Assembly (NCBI GenBank): GCA_946482075.1
Contig: CAMLQG010000043.1
Coordinates: forward strand, 1 to 25,742
DNA from: an uncultured Erythrobacteraceae bacterium
Lineage (GTDB): Bacteria > Pseudomonadota > Alphaproteobacteria > Sphingomonadales > Sphingomonadaceae
Direction: 5' to 3'
DNA length: 25,742 nt
Numbering within the stretch: position 1 is the first letter of the stretch; the number at the start of each line of letters is the position of its first letter. Shown here in pieces: positions 15,319 through 22,754 of the stretch. Below the pieces are notes generated by a model, which ran no database searches, had not been told where the DNA came from, and was given only the letters and a program-made list of their open reading frames with translations. The translations under genes and the position numbers were made by a program.

Positions 15319-16974
15319 TCACCCGCTCCTGAATCGGTGCGTGATCGGATAGCGCCGGTCGCGCCCGAAATTGCGCGCGCCGAGCTTCACCCCCGGCGGG
15401 GCCTGGCGGCGCTTGTATTCAGCGAGATGCAGCAGCCGCTCGATCCGGACGACGGTGTCGGGATCATGCCCTTCGGCGACCACCTGCTCCACGCTCTTCT
15501 CCTGCTCCACCAGGCCGAGCAGGATCGCATCCAGCACCGGATAGGGCGGCAGCGAATCCTCGTCCTTCTGGTCCGGCCGCAATTCCGCGCTGGGCGGCTT
15601 CACCAGGATGTTCTCGGGGATAACCGGTCCCTCCGGCCCCAGCCCGATCTTGGGCTTGTGCCTGTTGCGCCATTCCGAGATCGCGAAGACGGTCATCTTG
15701 TAGGCGTCCTTGAGCGGGTTATAGCCGCCCGCCATGTCGCCATAGATCGTGGCGTAGCCCACGCTCATCTCGCTCTTGTTGCCGGTCGTCAGCAGCATCG
15801 GGCCGAACTTGTTGCTCAAGGCCATCAGCGCCACGCCGCGGATGCGCGACTGGAGGTTCTCCTCCGTGATATCGACCTGCGTGTCGGCAAAGCTGTCGGA
15901 CAGCATCGCGTCGAACCCGTCCACCGCCGGCTGGATCGGGATCATGTCATGCTTGCAGCCGATCAGCTGCGCGCATTCCTCGGCATCGCGCAGGCTTTCC
16001 TCGCTGGTGAAGCGGCTGGGCAGCATCACGGCGGACACGCGATCCGGCCCCAGCGCATCGGCCGCGATCGCGGCGCAGACCGCACTGTCGATCCCCCCTG
16101 ACATGCCGAGCACCACGCCCGGAAAACCGTTCTTGTCGACATAGTCGCGCAAGGCCATGGTCATCGCGCAGTAGATGTCTTCCGGGTGATCGGCCAGCTG
16201 CTCGATCTCGCCCCGATCGCAGCGCCAGCCCTTGGCCGTCTTGGTCCAGTGAGTGGTGGTGACCTGTTCTTCCCAGTCGGTCATCTGGACAGCGAGCTTG
16301 CCGTCGCCATTGACCACGAAGCTCGCCCCGTCGAACACCAGTTCGTCCTGCCCGCCCACACGATTGAGATAGGCGAGTGGCAGGCCGGTATCCGCCGCAC
16401 GGCGCTTGGCCACGCCTTCGATGCGCAGCACGTCCTTCTCGATCTCGTAGGGGCTGCCGTTGACGCAGACGAACAGGCCCGCACCGAAATCGGCCAGATG
16501 GCGGCAGACTTCGGGATGCCAGATATCCTCGCAGATCGGCAGGCCCAGCATCGCGCCGCGGAAGATCACAGGTTCGGGCAGCGGCCCCGGCGTGAACAAG
16601 CGCTGTTCGTCGAACGTGCCGTAATTGGGAAGTTCATGCTTGAAGCGGGTTGCCGTCACTCGCCCGCCATCGAGCAGCGCCACGCCGTTGTGCAGCGCCC
16701 CGTCGCGCACGAAGACGCTGCCCACCAGCATCGCCGGGCCGCCGTCATTCGTCTGCTGGGCCAGCTGATCGAGCGCAGCCTGCGCACGTTCGATCAGCGA
16801 AGGCTTGAGGATGAGATCCTCCGCCGGATAGCCGATCAGCTGCATTTCCGGGAAAACGACGAGATCGCTGCTCCGTGAATCGTTGCGGACCGTCAGCATC
16901 TGCTTGGCGTTGCCGGCGATGTCTCCGACGTTCTGATTCAATTGAGCGAGAGTGATCGTGAGCGTATCGGCCAT
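15319..16974 (-). CDS. nadE: Glutamine-dependent NAD+ synthase
   Basis: This 551-residue two-domain enzyme makes NAD+ from deamido-NAD+, ATP and glutamine. The N-terminal nitrilase-fold glutaminase domain (about 1-260) has Glu43 (VVFPEMQLIGYP), a Lys in FKHELPNYGTFDEQRLF and the nucleophilic Cys in LPICEDIWHPE. The C-terminal synthetase domain (about 270-551) has the P-loop VVLGMSGGIDSAVCAAIA, LTTGNKSEMSVGYATIYGD and KPPSAELRPDQKDEDSLPPY. Both active sites look complete, so it can use glutamine directly. Start ATG at 16974 matches the conserved N-terminus, although no clear ribosome binding site is visible. Its upstream region is shared with the divergent PLP/ATP-grasp cluster. Confidence 0.96.
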   Translation of the reverse strand: MADTLTITLAQLNQNVGDIAGNAKQMLTVRNDSRSSDLVVFPEMQLIGYPAEDLILKPSLIERAQAALDQLAQQTNDGGPAMLVGSVFVRDGALHNGVALLDGGRVTATRFKHELPNYGTFDEQRLFTPGPLPEPVIFRGAMLGLPICEDIWHPEVCRHLADFGAGLFVCVNGSPYEIEKDVLRIEGVAKRRAADTGLPLAYLNRVGGQDELVFDGASFVVNGDGKLAVQMTDWEEQVTTTHWTKTAKGWRCDRGEIEQLADHPEDIYCAMTMALRDYVDKNGFPGVVLGMSGGIDSAVCAAIAADALGPDRVSAVMLPSRFTSEESLRDAEECAQLIGCKHDMIPIQPAVDGFDAMLSDSFADTQVDITEENLQSRIRGVALMALSNKFGPMLLTTGNKSEMSVGYATIYGDMAGGYNPLKDAYKMTVFAISEWRNRHKPKIGLGPEGPVIPENILVKPPSAELRPDQKDEDSLPPYPVLDAILLGLVEQEKSVEQVVAEGHDPDTVVRIERLLHLAEYKRRQAPPGVKLGARNFGRDRRYPITHRFRSG

Positions 16975-17208
16975 GGCATTTGTCTAGAGAGGGAAAAGCG
17001 CTCGGGCAATGGAGCCTGCGGCGAATGTTTGCGCGCAGACAAGCGATGCATCTCCGCGTGTGGAACAACCACCCGGCGGCGCCGGCACTCCGCGATTCCT
17101 GGAAATGGCGATCCGCAAGGCCCCATGGCGGGACGCTTCCTCCAAGGCCGATTATTTGCATCGAAAGGCGGCCTTCCCACGATGAGCCGCCCCTCTTCCG
17201 CGACGTTC

Positions 17209-17238
17209 CGTGCGGGTAACGGGAAGCCTCCCGGCACG
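17209..17238. other. Extended hairpin in the leader of the PLP/ATP-grasp cluster
   Basis: CGTGC (17209-17213) pairs with GCACG (17234-17238), and inside it CGGGA (17221 region) pairs with TCCCG (17229-17233), with a small asymmetric bulge. No T-run follows on the plus strand. It could be a leader RNA structure or an operator; function unknown. Confidence 0.4.
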
Positions 17239-17311
17239 CCACAAAATTGCCGCAAACCGACATCTATATCCACGTCAGCACGCTGTCTGTCAGAGACCCC
17301 TCAGCTGTCGA

Positions 17312-17316
17312 CGGAG
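17312..17316 (+). promoter_or_regulatory. Ribosome binding site of the 28-codon ORF
   Basis: CGGAG lies nine bases before the ATG at 17326, whereas the following PLP gene has no comparable site before its own ATG. Confidence 0.5.
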
Positions 17317-17325
17317 CATCCGGAC

Positions 17326-17412
17326 ATGGATTTGCCTTTGCGCGTTTTCCCCCTCGAAACGGCGCCTCCTGAATCGGCACCCTTTGGATCGGCGGCGGTG
17401 ATGCCTGGATGA
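17326..17412 (+). CDS. 28-residue ORF, translationally coupled to the PLP enzyme; possible leader or precursor peptide
   Basis: A short ORF (ATG 17326, TGA 17410-17412) encodes a Pro/Ala-rich peptide starting MDLPLRVFPLE and ending AAVMPG. No family is recognised. The case for translation is structural: a CGGAG site nine bases upstream, and a 4-base ATGA overlap in which its stop covers the start of the PLP-enzyme gene, which has no good ribosome binding site of its own. It could be a leader peptide that couples translation, or a small precursor substrate for the enzymes downstream. It has no Cys, Ser 17 and 22 and Thr 12 are the only hydroxyl residues, and there is no hydrophobic signal. Chance occurrence is possible for so short a frame. 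Confidence 0.45.
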   Translation: MDLPLRVFPLETAPPESAPFGSAAVMPG

Positions 17413-18827
17413 CGCTCAAGCTTCTGATGTCGCAAGGGGGTGACGAACGCATCACTCTCGATGTCAATTCGGGTCGCAACCGCTACGGATCGGCGCCCTG
17501 GCCGTCGCAGGACATCTGCTATGCCTCGTCCACGGCCAACAATCTTTCCGCGGGTGCGCTGGCCTATATCTCGAAGCTGAAGCCGATCCGCGGCGATGCG
17601 GCCGCCTATCGGGCCCGCCTGGAGGAAATGCGCGCCCGCATTCGCGCCGCCTACGGCCTGCCCGCCGGCGTCGACATCCTGTTTTCCCCTTCGGGCACCG
17701 ATCTCGAATTCGCCGCGCTGGCGATCGCATCCGGGCGTTTCGGCCGCCCGGTCCACAATATCCTGCTGGGCGGAAGCGAAGTGGGCAGCGGCTGCGAGCT
17801 GGCCGCGCAGGGGCGCTATTTCAACGAGACCACCGCGCGCGGCAGCTGCCGCCGCGGCGAACCGGTGGCGGGGCTGTGCGAATGCGGCCGCATGGTGCAG
17901 GTTTCCCTGCGCAAGGAATGCGGCGCATTGCGGCCGGAACAGGCTATCGTCGAGGAGATACTCGAACGTGCCGAGCTGGCGCTCGCAGGCGGCGCGAATC
18001 CGCTGATCCATGTTCTCCACGGTTCCAAGCTCGGTGCGCGCGTGCCGTCGCTCGGCGGGGTCGATCGCCTGCTCGCGCGGTTCGGCGGGCAAGCCGGCTT
18101 CGTCGTCGACGCCTGCCAGGCCAGGCTCGGCGGAGACGCGATCCGCGCCTATCTGGCACGCGGCGCAATGGTGATGCTTACCGGATCGAAATTCCTCGGC
18201 GGACCGCCGTTCAGCGGCATCCTGCTGGTCCCGCAGGGAGCCGCGCGCCCCGAAGCGGCGCTTCCCTCCGGCCTGGTGACGCTCTTCCGGCGGGCGGAAT
18301 GGCCTCTCGACTGGCCCGGCGCGGGCAGCCTGCCCGACGAGGCCAATGACGGCCTGGCCCTGCGCCTGGCGGCCGCGCTGTTCGAGCTTGAACGCTTCCT
18401 TGCGACCGACCCGGCCACGGTAGCCGCGATCATCGCGGCCTTCCGCCGGGTTACAGCCCGGTTCACCGGAGATGTCGGCGCGCGGATCATCCGCGGCCAT
18501 GGCGATCATGATGGCGATATCCTTGCCCAGACGCTCTGCGTCATCGACATGGCCGGTGTCGCGGGCGTGGACAGCTATGATCGCTGCACGATGTTCCATC
18601 GGGACCTGATGGACAGCGGCGTGAGGCTGGGCCAGCCCGTGAAGCATCCCGGCTGCGTGATCCGCCTGGCCCTGTCCATGCCCCAGATCGTGGAATTGTG
18701 CGAACTGGGTGCGCGCGAGGCGGAAGCCAGGCTGGATCTGGATTTCGAGATCATCGCCGCGCTGATCGCCAAGGAACCGCCTGCCAGAGAGCACCCCGCC
18801 AAGGAGCAGCCTGCTTGTCGGCAGTAA
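17409..18827 (+). CDS. Uncharacterised PLP-dependent fold-type-I enzyme (aminotransferase class V-like)
   Basis: This 472-residue protein has a fold-type-I PLP-enzyme core. LFSPSGTDLEFAALAIAS is the cofactor-phosphate region. FVVDACQARLG holds the cofactor-N1 Asp234. MLTGSKFLGGPPFSG holds the probable Schiff-base Lys261. The Asp-Lys spacing of 27 fits the class V/decarboxylase-like group. The N-terminus (NSGRNRYGSAPWPSQDICYA, then STANNLSAGAL) is unlike common aminotransferases. Several Cys (GSGCE, GLCECG, KECG) are unusual. The tail has a repeated KEPPA/KEQPA sequence from a 30-base direct duplication at 18767-18814. The reaction is unknown: transamination, desulfuration or decarboxylation are all possible. 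The gene overlaps the preceding 28-codon ORF by ATGA and the next gene by 13 bases, so the enzymes are surely co-expressed. Confidence 0.8.
   Translation: MTLKLLMSQGGDERITLDVNSGRNRYGSAPWPSQDICYASSTANNLSAGALAYISKLKPIRGDAAAYRARLEEMRARIRAAYGLPAGVDILFSPSGTDLEFAALAIASGRFGRPVHNILLGGSEVGSGCELAAQGRYFNETTARGSCRRGEPVAGLCECGRMVQVSLRKECGALRPEQAIVEEILERAELALAGGANPLIHVLHGSKLGARVPSLGGVDRLLARFGGQAGFVVDACQARLGGDAIRAYLARGAMVMLTGSKFLGGPPFSGILLVPQGAARPEAALPSGLVTLFRRAEWPLDWPGAGSLPDEANDGLALRLAAALFELERFLATDPATVAAIIAAFRRVTARFTGDVGARIIRGHGDHDGDILAQTLCVIDMAGVAGVDSYDRCTMFHRDLMDSGVRLGQPVKHPGCVIRLALSMPQIVELCELGAREAEARLDLDFEIIAALIAKEPPAREHPAKEQPACRQ
18767..18814 (+). repeat. 30-bp-period direct repeat at the end of the PLP gene
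   Basis: CGCCAAGGAACCGCCTGC (18767-18784) and CGCCAAGGAGCAGCCTGC (18797-18814) match at 16 of 18 positions. The second copy supplies the AAGGAG ribosome binding site of the ATP-grasp gene. Confidence 0.65.
18801..18806 (+). promoter_or_regulatory. Ribosome binding site fixing the TTG start of the ATP-grasp gene
   Basis: AAGGAG ends eight bases before the TTG at 18815. The ATG at 18827 would be 20 bases away, so the TTG start is preferred. Confidence 0.65.
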
Positions 18828-20056
18828 TGCATTTCCCGCTGCCTGCGGGGCTGCGGCGCGCGATTTCGGGGCCCGATCATCCGGTGGCGCTCTACTATGC
18901 CGGCATGGCCGCCCACCGGGGCATGGCCGCGCGCCTGTCCGCCCAGGCCGTGCGCGGGTTCCACGCGCTGGCCGCCATGGCGACGATGTCGCGTTATGCC
19001 GGCAGCGGCACGGGCTGGCGCGACCTGCCGACCTGCCTGCGTTTCGGCCTCCTCCCACGCGAACTCGCCTGGGCAAGCGACACCGGCATCGCGCCCTCGC
19101 TCGATCTCCTGCCCGCCCATGTGAAGAAGGGGATCGATCTTCTGCTCAATCCCAACGCCTTCCCGCTGGACGGCAATCTGCTGCTCGACAAGCGCCGCTT
19201 CGACACGGTCATGCGCGCAGCCGGCCTGCCTTTGCCGCAGACCTTCGGAGCGGATGATCTCCCTTCGGGGATTCCGGACTGGGCCCGCACGTCCGACGCG
19301 CTGATCTTCAAGCCCGGTTTCGCCAGCCAGGGGCGCGGCATGGTTCGGCTGGAACGGCGCCAAGGCGGATGGGCGGCGAGCAACCAGCCCGACACGCTGT
19401 TCGACCTTGCCGACTGGCTCCGCGCGCGCATGCGCACGGGCGACGTGGCGCAGCAGTTCCTCAGTCCCCATCCCGAGATGGAGACACGCTCGCCCGGCGC
19501 GCTGCCCACACTGCGCATCATCACCTGCCTCGACGAGCAGGACCGCCCGGAAGTGACTCACGCCATCGTCCGTTTTGGCAGCGGGGCTTCCTTCCTCGAC
19601 AATTTCCATCGCGGCGGCGTGGCGGCGATGGTCGACCTCGCGAGCGGCCGCACCGGCCGGGCGATGCAGCGCGACACGAAAGGCCGCTTCCACCCGATCG
19701 CAAGCCATCCCCGCACGGGCGAGGCGATGAACGGCTTCGCGCTGCCCCGGTTCGCCGAATGCCTGGCCGTGGCGCGTCATGCGCATGAAACGTTTCTCGG
19801 CAAGGTCGGCAAGGCGGTTTCCGTCGGCTGGGATGTCGCGCTGTCATCCGCCGGGCCGATGCTGATCGAAGGGAACTGGAATCCCGGCCTGCCAACGCTG
19901 CAATACATCGCCGGCAGCGGCCTCGGCGCGTCCCGCCTCGGGCAGCTGTGGTGCCATCATCTGAAGCAGGTGCCGCCGCAGCGCTGGAAGGCGCTCCCCG
20001 CGATTTCCTACAGCCGGTCGCCGATCAGGCAGGAACAGCGGCGCATCGGTGAATAG
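18815..20056 (+). CDS. ATP-grasp protein resembling the sugar-transfer-associated ATP-grasp family
   Basis: This 413-residue protein (TTG start) has an ATP-grasp C-terminal half. DALIFKPGFASQGRGMVRL carries an ATP-binding Lys166 and a glycine-rich loop. LPTLRIITCLDE is the substrate-facing strand with Arg. VGWDVALSSAGPMLIEGNWNPG contains the metal ligands Glu352 and Asn354. The layout resembles the sugar-transfer-associated ATP-grasp domain (alpha-L-glutamate ligase-related). The N-terminal about 100 residues (YYAGMAAHRGMAARLSAQAV and on) are helical and unassigned. ATP-grasp enzymes join a carboxylate to an amine or thiol through an acyl phosphate, so a ligation step on the product of the PLP enzyme is a reasonable inference. 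The substrate is unknown. The gene overlaps the PLP gene by 13 bases; the MFS gene starts 48 bases later. Confidence 0.8.
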   Translation: MSAVMHFPLPAGLRRAISGPDHPVALYYAGMAAHRGMAARLSAQAVRGFHALAAMATMSRYAGSGTGWRDLPTCLRFGLLPRELAWASDTGIAPSLDLLPAHVKKGIDLLLNPNAFPLDGNLLLDKRRFDTVMRAAGLPLPQTFGADDLPSGIPDWARTSDALIFKPGFASQGRGMVRLERRQGGWAASNQPDTLFDLADWLRARMRTGDVAQQFLSPHPEMETRSPGALPTLRIITCLDEQDRPEVTHAIVRFGSGASFLDNFHRGGVAAMVDLASGRTGRAMQRDTKGRFHPIASHPRTGEAMNGFALPRFAECLAVARHAHETFLGKVGKAVSVGWDVALSSAGPMLIEGNWNPGLPTLQYIAGSGLGASRLGQLWCHHLKQVPPQRWKALPAISYSRSPIRQEQRRIGE

Positions 20057-20104
20057 CGCCGCTGGGCAACTTGCCATTCGCCTGCGCGGCGTTATCCCAA
20101 GGGC

Positions 20105-21802
20105 ATGACGCAGCATCCCCCCGGCAGCTCGCAAACGGATGACGCGCCGCCAGGCAAAGCGAAGCGAGGCAAGCTTACCGCGCCGTTGACGGTGCCGATC
20201 TTTCGCCGGATCTGGATTTCCAGCCTGCTGTCCAATTTCGGCCTGCTGATCATCGGCGTCGCCGCTGCCTGGGAAATGACCCGGCTGAGCGGCGATCCGA
20301 CGATGGTCGCGCTGGTGCAGACCGCGATCATGTCGCCCTTCATGGTCTTCTCGCTGTTCGCCGGCGCGCTGGCGGACATCGTCGACCGGCGCAAGGTCAG
20401 CCTGTTCGCCCTGTTCTTCCCCGTCGCCGGCGCGATCGGGCTGGCGGTGCTCAGCCATCTCGAACTGGCCACGCCGGGGCTGCTCCTGCTGCTGTCCTTC
20501 ATCGTCGGCATGGGCCTCGCTCTGTTCAGCCCCGCCTGGCAGGCATCGGTGAGCGAGCAGGTATCGCCCGCCATGCTGCCCGCCGCGATCGCGCTGAACG
20601 GCATCAGCTTCAACATCGCACGCAGCATCGGCCCGGCGATAGGCGGCATCATGGTGGCAGCGGTCGGCGCCGTGGCGACGTTCGGGACGACCGCGGTGCT
20701 TTATGTCCCGCTGTTCACGGCCCTGTTCCTGTGGCGGCGCGAGCAGGAAGCATCGCGCCTGCCGCCGGAGAAGCTGCGCGCGGCGATCGTGGCGGGCATC
20801 CGCTACGCCTTCCATTCGCCCTATCTGCTGCGCGTCCTGGTGCGCGGCTTTACCGCCGCATTCGCGCTCGCCTCGCTCTACGCGCTGATGCCGCTCATCG
20901 CCAAGGACATCCTGCATGGCGGACCCGAGCTCTACGGCCTGCTCCTCGCCGGCTTCGGCGTGGGTTCCGTGGTCGGCGCGGCGATCGTCTCGAACCTGCA
21001 GGAACGGTTCGAACCGGAAACGATCATCCGCGGAGCGATGATCCTGATCGCCTTCGTGATCGTCTGCGTCAGCCTCAGCCCATGGGCCTGGCTCACGATC
21101 TTCGCGCTCGCTTTCGCAGGGATGGCGTGGATGATCGTGGCGACGCTCCTGAACGTGATGGTGCAGACCGGCGCGCCGCGATGGGTGACGGCGCGCGCGC
21201 TCGGCCTGTTCCAGACCACGGTCGCCGGCGGCCTGGCGCTGGGCAGCTGGAGCTGGGGCGAAGTCGCGTCGGAAGCCGGGCTGCAGATCTCGCTGGTCTG
21301 TTCCGCCGCGGCGATGATCGCTTTCCTGTTCCTGGGTCTCGCTCGCCCGCTCTCGCGCGAGCACAATCAGGCGAACACGCCCGCGGAACTGCGCCCCGAT
21401 CCCGAGATCACCCTGGCGATCACGGGCCGCAGCGGTCCGATCTCGATCGAGATCGAATATCGCATCGAACCGTCGGAGGCGCGCAGCTTCTACAAGCTGA
21501 TGGAAGAGCTGGGCCGCATCAAGCGGCGCAATGGGGCGCAGGCCTGGATGCTGGCGCGCGACCTGAACGATCCGGCGCTCTGGTCGGAACGCTATCAATA
21601 CGCCACCTGGGACGATTTCCTGCGCAACCGCAACCGCGCGACCGAGACCGAACGGCAGTTGCAGGTCCGGATCGTGGAAATGACCGTTGATGGCGAGATC
21701 AAGTCGCGCATGCTGCTCGATCGCCCGTCCGGCTCCGTCCGCTGGAACGAGGACGCGCCCGATTACGGACCCGACAAGATCCATTCCGCGACGATCGCCT
21801 GA
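20105..21802 (+). CDS. MFS_3 family (EntS-like) exporter with C-terminal dimeric alpha/beta-barrel-like domain
   Basis: This 565-residue protein has two parts. Residues about 25-420 form a 10-12-helix major facilitator of the MFS_3 type: PIFRRIWISSLLSNFGLLI, DVVALVQTAIM-like TM2 (MVALVQTAIMSPFMVFSLF), then ALADIVDRRKV as the signature loop between TM2 and TM3. NGISFNIARSIGPAIGG and VTARALGLFQTTVAGGLALG are further family motifs. EntS, which exports enterobactin, belongs here. Residues about 440-545 (ISIEIEYRIEPSEARSFYKL, then YQYATWDDFLRNRNRATE) look like an antibiotic-biosynthesis-monooxygenase-type ferredoxin fold on the cytosolic side, known in some family members. It is 48 bases after the ATP-grasp gene and probably exports the cluster's product. 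Its stop abuts that of the convergent DUF2478 gene. Confidence 0.87.
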   Translation: MTQHPPGSSQTDDAPPGKAKRGKLTAPLTVPIFRRIWISSLLSNFGLLIIGVAAAWEMTRLSGDPTMVALVQTAIMSPFMVFSLFAGALADIVDRRKVSLFALFFPVAGAIGLAVLSHLELATPGLLLLLSFIVGMGLALFSPAWQASVSEQVSPAMLPAAIALNGISFNIARSIGPAIGGIMVAAVGAVATFGTTAVLYVPLFTALFLWRREQEASRLPPEKLRAAIVAGIRYAFHSPYLLRVLVRGFTAAFALASLYALMPLIAKDILHGGPELYGLLLAGFGVGSVVGAAIVSNLQERFEPETIIRGAMILIAFVIVCVSLSPWAWLTIFALAFAGMAWMIVATLLNVMVQTGAPRWVTARALGLFQTTVAGGLALGSWSWGEVASEAGLQISLVCSAAAMIAFLFLGLARPLSREHNQANTPAELRPDPEITLAITGRSGPISIEIEYRIEPSEARSFYKLMEELGRIKRRNGAQAWMLARDLNDPALWSERYQYATWDDFLRNRNRATETERQLQVRIVEMTVDGEIKSRMLLDRPSGSVRWNEDAPDYGPDKIHSATIA

Positions 21803-22333
21803 TCAGCCCGCCGCGCGCAGGCCCGCCTGTTCGCGCATCTCGAGCCACCAGCCATCGATCGCATCGGCATCCGCATCGATCCGGGTGAAGAGCGGGCTGG
21901 CGAAGCGTTCCCACGCGTCGACATGCTTCCACGAGACCGAGGTCAGCACCGGCACGCGCGCCTGGATCGCCGCAGCATAGGCGGGAACCAGGCCCGAGCG
22001 GCTTTCGGCCTCCAGCTTGCCGAACTTGCTCAGCAGCACGAGTTCGCAGCCTGCCGCGATCTCGCGCTCGACCGCATCGCTCGCCGTGACGACCCCGCCG
22101 GGATCGAGCGCGCAGCCCTGCGCATGCGGCCCCAGTTCCTGGAACAGCGAATAGGTCCGGCCGTCGGTGATCGAACGCAGCGCGCCCGGCCCGCAGGCGC
22201 GCACGATGTCCGGCCGCGATTCCTCGGTGACGCCGACGATCCGGCACGAATTGCGCCAGCGTTCCACGAAATCGCGGAACAGCTGCTGGATATCGCTGCC
22301 CTTCTCGCCCCGCACGACCGCGATCTGCTTCAT
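21803..22333 (-). CDS. DUF2478 family protein (molybdenum-operon-type NTP-binding protein)
   Basis: This 176-residue protein matches DUF2478: [19 protein letters not shown] at the start, then [39 protein letters not shown] and [20 protein letters not shown], with [14 protein letters not shown] near the end. The family is usually annotated as a nucleoside-triphosphatase-like protein found near molybdate transport or molybdenum-cofactor genes, but it has no established activity, and no such genes are in this window. The open frame runs 111 bases further upstream; the ATG at 22333 is chosen because family resemblance starts there. Its TGA is immediately adjacent to the stop of the convergent MFS gene. 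It is divergent from ynfA-like. Confidence 0.83.
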
Positions 22334-22430
22334 GGCCTCGCCTTTCGCCTCCGGCTTCGGACGCCTACCGTACACGCGCTTTGCCGCGGCGGCCATTGCC
22401 GTCATGCGCCATGCCTGCGACAAGCCGCCC

Positions 22431-22754
22431 ATGGCTCCGCTCATCTATCTCGGCGCGGCGATCGCGGAAATCGCCGGCTGCTTCGCCTTCTGGGCCTGGC
22501 TCCGGCTCGGCAAGTCGCCGCTGTGGCTGATACCCGGCATCGCCTTGCTCTGCCTGTTCGCGTGGTTGCTGACGCTGGTCGATACCGAGAACGCCGGCCG
22601 CGCCTATGCCGCCTATGGCGGGATCTACATCCTCTCCGCGCTGCTGTGGCTGTGGGCGGCCGAAAGCGTGCGACCCGATCGCTGGGACGTGCTGGGCACC
22701 TCGATCTGCCTGGCGGGCGCGGCCGTGATCCTGTGGGGGCCGCGGGCGGGGTAG
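22431..22754 (+). CDS. YnfA family (UPF0060) small membrane protein
   Basis: This 107-residue protein has four predicted transmembrane helices: [60 protein letters not shown] and [18 protein letters not shown]. The signatures [17 protein letters not shown] and [12 protein letters not shown] are diagnostic of YnfA, a relative of small-multidrug-resistance proteins in which some members have been linked to efflux of quaternary cations. Length matches the about 108-residue E. coli protein when the start is the ATG at 22431. An in-frame ATG at 22404 is an alternative. No clear ribosome binding site is visible. It is divergent from the DUF2478 gene. Confidence 0.93.

What the first reader, a model, noticed from the sequence alone, without database searches (positions are those of the whole stretch)
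17326..21802. Compact unit: short ORF, unusual PLP enzyme, ATP-grasp protein and MFS_3 exporter
Seen: four reading frames on one strand, with a 4-base overlap, a 13-base overlap and a 48-base gap. Known: PLP enzymes transform amino acids, ATP-grasp enzymes ligate carboxylates to amines, and MFS_3 includes siderophore exporters such as EntS. Inferred: a small system that makes or modifies an amino-acid-derived product and exports it. The PLP enzyme and ATP-grasp protein do not match a pathway I recognise, and there is no NRPS, PKS or glycosyltransferase beside them. This is the best candidate in the window for an undescribed system.
Basis: partly seen in the sequence, partly recalled or inferred. 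Interest (0 to 1): 0.75.

Follow-up and report, generated by a model that had tools for sequence, protein, structure and literature searches.

The report
PLP enzyme with swappable amide ligases
Three adjacent bacterial genes look like a compact make-and-export unit: an unclassified vitamin-B6 (PLP) enzyme overlaps the gene of a predicted amide-bond-forming ligase, its relatives elsewhere often sit beside other amide ligases, and the transporter's part is a guess.

Summary
The genes and spacings are real: PLP enzyme 17409-18827, ATP-grasp from TTG 18815 to 20056, MFS_3 20105-21802; the 28-codon ORF lacks coding support. The exact trio was seen nowhere else. The PLP enzyme belongs to a family without a matching Pfam or NCBIfam model. 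In Sphingomonadales it sits divergently beside a Ddl-like ATP-grasp (77 of 80 loci; 46 of 47 genomes). Distant relatives sit beside, or are fused to, a RimK-like ATP-grasp, usually with a PLP decarboxylase; 5 of 17 rhizobial plasmid loci read have it directly after an NRPS or adenylation-domain gene. The window's ATPgrasp_ST type lies within one gene of the same Ddl-like gene in 9 of 17 genomes with strong matches. So PLP enzyme plus amide ligase recurs, and the window is a divergent variant with another ligase. The exporter link rests on this window alone (0 of 20 MFS_3 loci with 1.5-kb flanks have a partner gene). Most likely it makes a small amide from an amino-acid-like amine; substrate and product are unknown. 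New variant of a known kind.

The parts
17326..17412 (+). 28-codon ORF overlapping the PLP start by ATGA; possible leader peptide or chance
   Evidence: Sequence; third-position G+C 0.55 against 0.81-0.91 for the other frames measured
17409..18827 (+). PLP enzyme, 472 aa, fold-type-I class V fold, no Pfam/NCBIfam match
18815..20056 (+). ATP-grasp ligase, PF14397 (ATPgrasp_ST), 413 aa from TTG 18815 (409 aa from ATG 18827), overlapping the PLP gene by 13 bases
20105..21802 (+). MFS_3 (PF05977) exporter-like protein, 565 aa, after a 48-base gap
15319..16974 (-). Flanking NAD synthase gene (not part of the unit)
21803..22444 (-). Flanking DUF2478 gene, convergent (not part of the unit)

Best explanation
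A small amidoligase unit. The PLP enzyme makes or reshapes an amine-bearing building block derived from an amino acid (transamination or epimerisation/racemisation are the likeliest chemistries). The ATP-grasp, whose gene overlaps it, activates a carboxylate as an acyl phosphate and joins it to that amine, giving a dipeptide-like amide. MFS_3 probably exports the product. Shown: gene order and overlap; predicted fold; conserved core residues; recurrent pairing of the PLP family with amide ligases, including gene fusion. Inferred: that the ligase forms an amide, that the PLP step comes first, that MFS_3 belongs to the pathway. Unknown: substrate and product.
For: (1) 77 of 80 PLP-family loci carry a Ddl-like ATP-grasp beside the PLP gene; of the 3 misses, L006 and L068 start near a contig edge and L073 does not. 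(2) In 396 Sphingomonadales-order genomes, 46 of 47 with the PLP gene also have the Ddl-like gene (118 of 396 overall), adjacent and divergent in all 46 by the listed coordinates (hypergeometric 1e-26, ignoring shared ancestry). (3) All 5 genomes examined with a distant PLP relative have a RimK-like ATP-grasp (3 of the 5 supplied the query alignment), adjacent in 4, with a PLP decarboxylase in the same 4. (4) Three database proteins of 935-975 aa fuse the PLP domain to that ATP-grasp domain. (5) That domain's model matches LysX/ArgX and Ddl among its best hits; one member hits Pfam Synapsin_C at E 1.2e-4, just under that family's cut-off. (6) 5 of 17 plasmid loci read have the PLP gene directly downstream of an NRPS or adenylation-domain gene, by a 4-base overlap in 4 and a 27-base gap in 1. 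(7) The window's ATPgrasp_ST type lies beside the same Ddl-like gene in 6, and one nucleotidyltransferase gene away in 3, of 17 genomes with strong matches. (8) The window PLP keeps 85 of 95 positions that are at least 95% conserved in 80 relatives; putative ATP/metal residues of the ATP-grasp are among the columns invariant in 20 rows.
Against: The window's combination (PLP + ATPgrasp_ST + MFS_3, no Ddl-like gene labelled in 25.7 kb) was seen once only. Among the 396 genomes the PLP gene (47) and a strong ATPgrasp_ST match (17) never co-occur; at the loose cut-off (E<=1e-3, 59 genomes) 11 co-occur, against about 7 expected. 10 of 17 plasmid loci read had neither an NRPS nor the RimK-like ligase nearby, nor did L197 (ligase on another contig). 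72 of 118 genomes with the Ddl-like gene lack the PLP gene. No tool result gives a substrate.
Confidence: 0.55

Rival explanations
1. The unit decorates a surface polymer or lipid-linked glycan with an amino-acid-derived group, rather than making a small released molecule; MFS_3 is then incidental or moves a precursor.
For: 25 of 80 PLP loci also carry a MobA-like nucleotidyltransferase and 15 of 80 a Wzx-like flippase (names); three Ddl/nucleotidyltransferase/ATPgrasp_ST gene runs are followed by a GT4 glycosyltransferase (L111-L113). PF14397 is named sugar-transfer associated.
Against: None of these query families was labelled in the window; the wider family has NRPS and decarboxylase neighbours instead.
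Confidence: 0.27
2. Only PLP and ATP-grasp form a unit; MFS_3 is an ordinary exporter that happens to lie downstream. (Overlaps with the best explanation, except for export.)
For: 41 of 396 genomes have strong MFS_3 homologues (E<=1e-110); 0 of 20 homologue loci with about 1.5-kb flanks have PLP, ATPgrasp_ST or Ddl-like genes. 5 of the 17 strong-ATPgrasp_ST genomes also have one, but at other places.
Against: Same strand, 48-base gap, no terminator-like site in the gap.
Confidence: 0.4
3. The window's PLP gene is a relic or has changed function: a fast-evolving copy that lost its Ddl-like partner and landed beside an unrelated ATP-grasp.
For: End branch 2.04 against a median of 0.24 (quick tree, place unsure); 10 near-invariant positions changed, against at most 7 in other members that are not cut short or split.
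Against: Intact 472-codon frame with coding pattern, putative PLP-site residues kept, 13-base overlap with the ligase gene; its ATP-grasp lies in a 51-row group (support 85) that holds all 9 Ddl-linked members.
Confidence: 0.12

Closest known systems
Predicted operons joining ATP-grasp peptide ligases with PLP enzymes (PMC2922099; abstract start and passages seen)
   Same: Small operons with amino-acid-modifying PLP enzymes and ATP-grasp ligases among their variants, proposed to make modified amino acids or peptides
   Different: Those are built round a tRNA-synthetase-like or oxygenase-cupin protein, not seen here; whether the PLP family is the same was not tested
Sphingomonadales PLP - Ddl-like ATP-grasp locus (found here)
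   Same: Same PLP family (39-50% identity in the 46 rows other than G224)
   Different: Divergent Ddl-like ligase, in part with a nucleotidyltransferase and flippase; the window has ATPgrasp_ST and MFS_3 instead and another chromosomal site
Decarboxylase - RimK-like ATP-grasp - PLP gene runs and PLP-ATP-grasp fusions in other Alphaproteobacteria and metagenomes (found here)
   Same: A related PLP domain joined to an ATP-grasp ligase
   Different: Another ATP-grasp family; extra PLP decarboxylase
Class V aminotransferase fold (NifS, AGT, PhnW)
   Different: No sequence match to a solved member at a meaningful E-value

Membership tests
Fold-type-I class V PLP enzymes | Overall fold | tested here: met
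Fold-type-I class V PLP enzymes | Schiff-base lysine, Asp to the pyridine N, phosphate-binding loop | tested here: inconclusive
   K261, D234-x-x-Q237 and S95-G96-T97 are invariant in 26 rows; their roles are assigned from recalled motifs, not from a superposition
Fold-type-I class V PLP enzymes | Match to a Pfam family of PLP enzymes | tested here: not met
   0 Pfam families at E<=0.1
Cysteine desulfurase (NifS/IscS) | Catalytic Cys on a C-terminal loop (recalled) | tested here: not met
   C129 and C236 are the only Cys among the conserved positions; none in the C-terminal part
ATPgrasp_ST (PF14397) | Profile match above the gathering score | tested here: met
   134.4 bits, cut-off 31.4
ATPgrasp_ST (PF14397) | Putative ATP/metal residues kept | tested here: met
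   K175, D349, E361, N363 (numbered from base 18788) invariant in 20 rows, window included; roles recalled
EntS siderophore exporter | NCBIfam equivalog score | tested here: not met
   117.5 bits against cut-off 324
Sphingomonadales PLP-Ddl locus | Ddl-like gene beside the PLP gene | tested here: not met
   None labelled in the 25.7-kb window; the rest of the genome is not held
PLP + amide ligase unit | Ligase and PLP activities on linked substrates | not testable with these tools
   Needs biochemistry

The most novel reading that the evidence does not exclude
An undescribed PLP enzyme family serves as the general partner of amide ligases: the same PLP chemistry has been joined independently to Ddl-like, RimK-like and ATPgrasp_ST ligases and to NRPSs, acting directly on the ligase's product or acyl intermediate, and so yields a large uncharted class of amino-acid-derived metabolites in Alphaproteobacteria.
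Probability: 0.25. Interest if true: 0.78.

Novelty: new variant of a known kind. Interest (0 to 1): 0.52.

Why it matters
It points to a PLP family with no Pfam or NCBIfam match, found in about one in eight of the Sphingomonadales-order genomes sampled (47 of 396), that keeps company with amide ligases of several kinds. That gives a concrete handle on the chemistry: related PLP enzymes can be tested with four different kinds of ligase partner. If it works as proposed, it opens a set of small biosynthetic loci that searches keyed on NRPS or PKS genes would be expected to overlook.

Tried and rejected
Considered and rejected: (a) that the trio is a conserved cassette: 0 of 80 PLP loci and 0 of 20 MFS_3 loci support it (MFS_3 flanks only about 1.5 kb). 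(b) Siderophore export by analogy with EntS: score far below the equivalog cut-off. (c) Cysteine desulfurase: no conserved C-terminal Cys. (d) Phosphonate biosynthesis, suggested by PhnW/PntC among the fold matches and a nucleotidyltransferase in relatives: not searched for, so neither supported nor excluded. (e) PLP and ATPgrasp_ST as strict alternatives: in five loci (L117, L120, L124, L125, L127) ATPgrasp_ST with the Ddl-like gene lies between rne and sdhB/zapE, where others, such as L014, have PLP with the Ddl-like gene. With strong matches only (E<1e-19, a cut-off set after seeing the list) the overlap is 0: hypergeometric 0.0003 among 118 Ddl genomes but only 0.11 among all 396; at E<=1e-3, 11 genomes have both. 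I treat it as suggestive, and the window breaks it.

Led nowhere: profile search of the PLP alignment against PDB sequences; profile comparison of the RimK-like family with the other ATP-grasps (no convincing match; the structural model decided it). Paper searches found 0 papers; others listed 5, 2 and 1 papers, none by title or abstract start on this system; only PMC2922099 was opened, passages only. The careful PLP tree did not finish; the quick tree is cited. In some searches my automatic frame choice picked shadow frames in L150; one search corrected it. Clusters C26 and C59 lie opposite the nucleotidyltransferase and rne genes, look like shadow frames and were dropped. In one search the last protein (22403-22754) was given in a length not divisible by three, so its empty result means nothing.
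Full report
What is there. On the + strand lie three coding frames: 17409-18827 (472 aa), 18815-20056 (413 aa from a TTG) and 20105-21802 (565 aa). Third-position G+C is 0.81, 0.84 and 0.88, like the flanking genes. The 28-codon frame in front has a weak coding signal and stays unexplained. The flanks are an NAD synthase gene and a DUF2478 gene, both on the other strand. In a pattern scan of 16900-22000, whose counts barely exceed shuffles, the one promoter-like site lies inside the ATP-grasp gene and no terminator-like site lies between the genes.

Neighbours of the PLP family in Sphingomonadales. A scan of genome contigs gave 289 relatives, of which the best 80 are held. None of the 80 has the window's ATP-grasp type or MFS_3 in the DNA held, up to 8 kb each side. 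But 77 of 80 have a Ddl-like ATP-grasp next door; L006 and L068 begin near a contig edge, L073 is a real miss. 25 of 80 also have a MobA-like nucleotidyltransferase, 15 of 80 a Wzx-like flippase (names). In 396 genomes of the order, the PLP gene is in 47 and the Ddl-like gene in 118; 46 of the 47 have both, adjacent and divergent by the listed coordinates. These counts ignore shared ancestry, and some genomes are the same as those.

Neighbours of the ATP-grasp type. In the same 396 genomes 59 have a match at E<=1e-3 and 17 at E<1e-19 (the second cut-off was mine, set after seeing the list). 15 of the 17 have the Ddl-like gene; in 6 it is next door and in 3 a nucleotidyltransferase gene lies between. 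In five of these (L117, L120, L124, L125, L127) the two sit between rne and sdhB/zapE, the slot where other genomes have the PLP gene with the Ddl-like gene. None of the 20 regions fetched has the PLP gene. In a 77-row quick tree the window's ATP-grasp lies in a 51-row group (support 85) that holds all 9 Ddl-linked members; its nearest kin are metagenome proteins P0122-P0125. 39 further Ddl-like regions (19, 20) contain no PLP gene; 24 of the 39 have a nucleotidyltransferase gene in the stretch printed, so Ddl-like plus nucleotidyltransferase occurs without the PLP enzyme.

The wider PLP family. In 385 genomes of the class, 6 have a match; two (G001, G036) belong to the order sampled before and four are distant (37-43%). 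With G224 that makes five distant cases. All five genomes carry a RimK-like ATP-grasp (E<1e-81; three of them supplied the query alignment), next to the PLP gene in four, and the same four have a decarboxylase there (Pyridoxal_deC by Pfam in L198-L200; by tblastn in L150). The ATP-grasp identity rests on a model (pLDDT 78.9) whose 50 listed matches are LysX/ArgX, Ddl and other ATP-grasp or ATP-grasp-like enzymes (TM-scores only 0.4-0.65) and on a Synapsin_C hit just under the cut-off for one member; Pfam found nothing for the three members scanned beyond one chance-level hit. Three database proteins of 935, 955 and 975 aa carry PLP domain and ATP-grasp domain in one chain. In annotated plasmids 33 records match the window's PLP protein, all of the genera Rhizobium, Sinorhizobium and Neorhizobium, and 35 match the fusion protein. 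I read 17 loci, picked by hand from the two lists (L209 and L210 only). Two have the RimK-like ligase and decarboxylase (L206, L211); five have the PLP gene directly after an NRPS or adenylation-domain gene (L207, L209, L210, L220, L221; 4-base overlap in four, 27-base gap in L210); ten have neither, and one of these ten has a D-alanine aminotransferase and a D-aminopeptidase gene beside it (L208).

Reading. A PLP enzyme that often travels with amide-bond-forming enzymes of several kinds, and is fused to one of them, most likely supplies or reshapes an amine for that ligase. The window holds a fast-evolving member (end branch 2.04, median 0.24; position unsure) that keeps 85 of 95 conserved positions and has an ATPgrasp_ST as partner. 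MFS_3 is common (41 of 396 genomes at E<=1e-110) and not linked in the 20 loci seen, so export is the weakest step. Transamination and racemisation are both compatible with the fold; the Ddl-like partner and the one D-amino-acid neighbourhood lean slightly to D-amino acids, which is inference.

Comparison with print. PMC2922099 (abstract start and passages) predicts operons in which ATP-grasp peptide ligases or PLP enzymes join other amino-acid-modifying genes, so the kind is known; the PLP family and these pairings were not found in seven paper searches of an open-licence library that lacks most subscription journals. Hence 'new variant of a known kind'.

Noticed in passing
L131-L170 (without L150), e.g. 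L159:5949-7768: A Ddl-like ATP-grasp plus MobA-like nucleotidyltransferase recurs in Sphingomonadales without the PLP gene (24 of 39 regions), in part between rne and sdhB; an uncharacterised locus of its own.
   Followed up: partly
L207:1-8485, L209, L210, L220, L221: NRPS or adenylation-domain genes on Sinorhizobium and Rhizobium plasmids run directly into a PLP-family gene, followed in several by a ParB-like protein, a SagB-type dehydrogenase or a phosphopantetheinyl transferase.
   Followed up: partly
L128:8559-13284 and L129:3908-13744: Groups of four and five ATPgrasp_ST paralogues in single loci.
   Followed up: no
L210:12238-15380: A phosphocholine cytidylyltransferase family gene beside a protein with a weak SelA match and a GHMP kinase, downstream of the NRPS-PLP pair.
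   Followed up: no
L208:4837-8419: D-aminopeptidase (dmpA) and D-alanine aminotransferase (dat) genes directly before a PLP-family gene in Neorhizobium.
   Followed up: no
L197:7608-9809: The PLP protein of G733 and several database relatives (673-732 aa) carry a long extra N-terminal region; no Pfam match of note in those scanned.
   Followed up: no
window 17326-17412: A 28-codon ORF with a GGAG nine bases before its ATG overlaps the PLP start by ATGA; possible leader peptide.
   Followed up: partly
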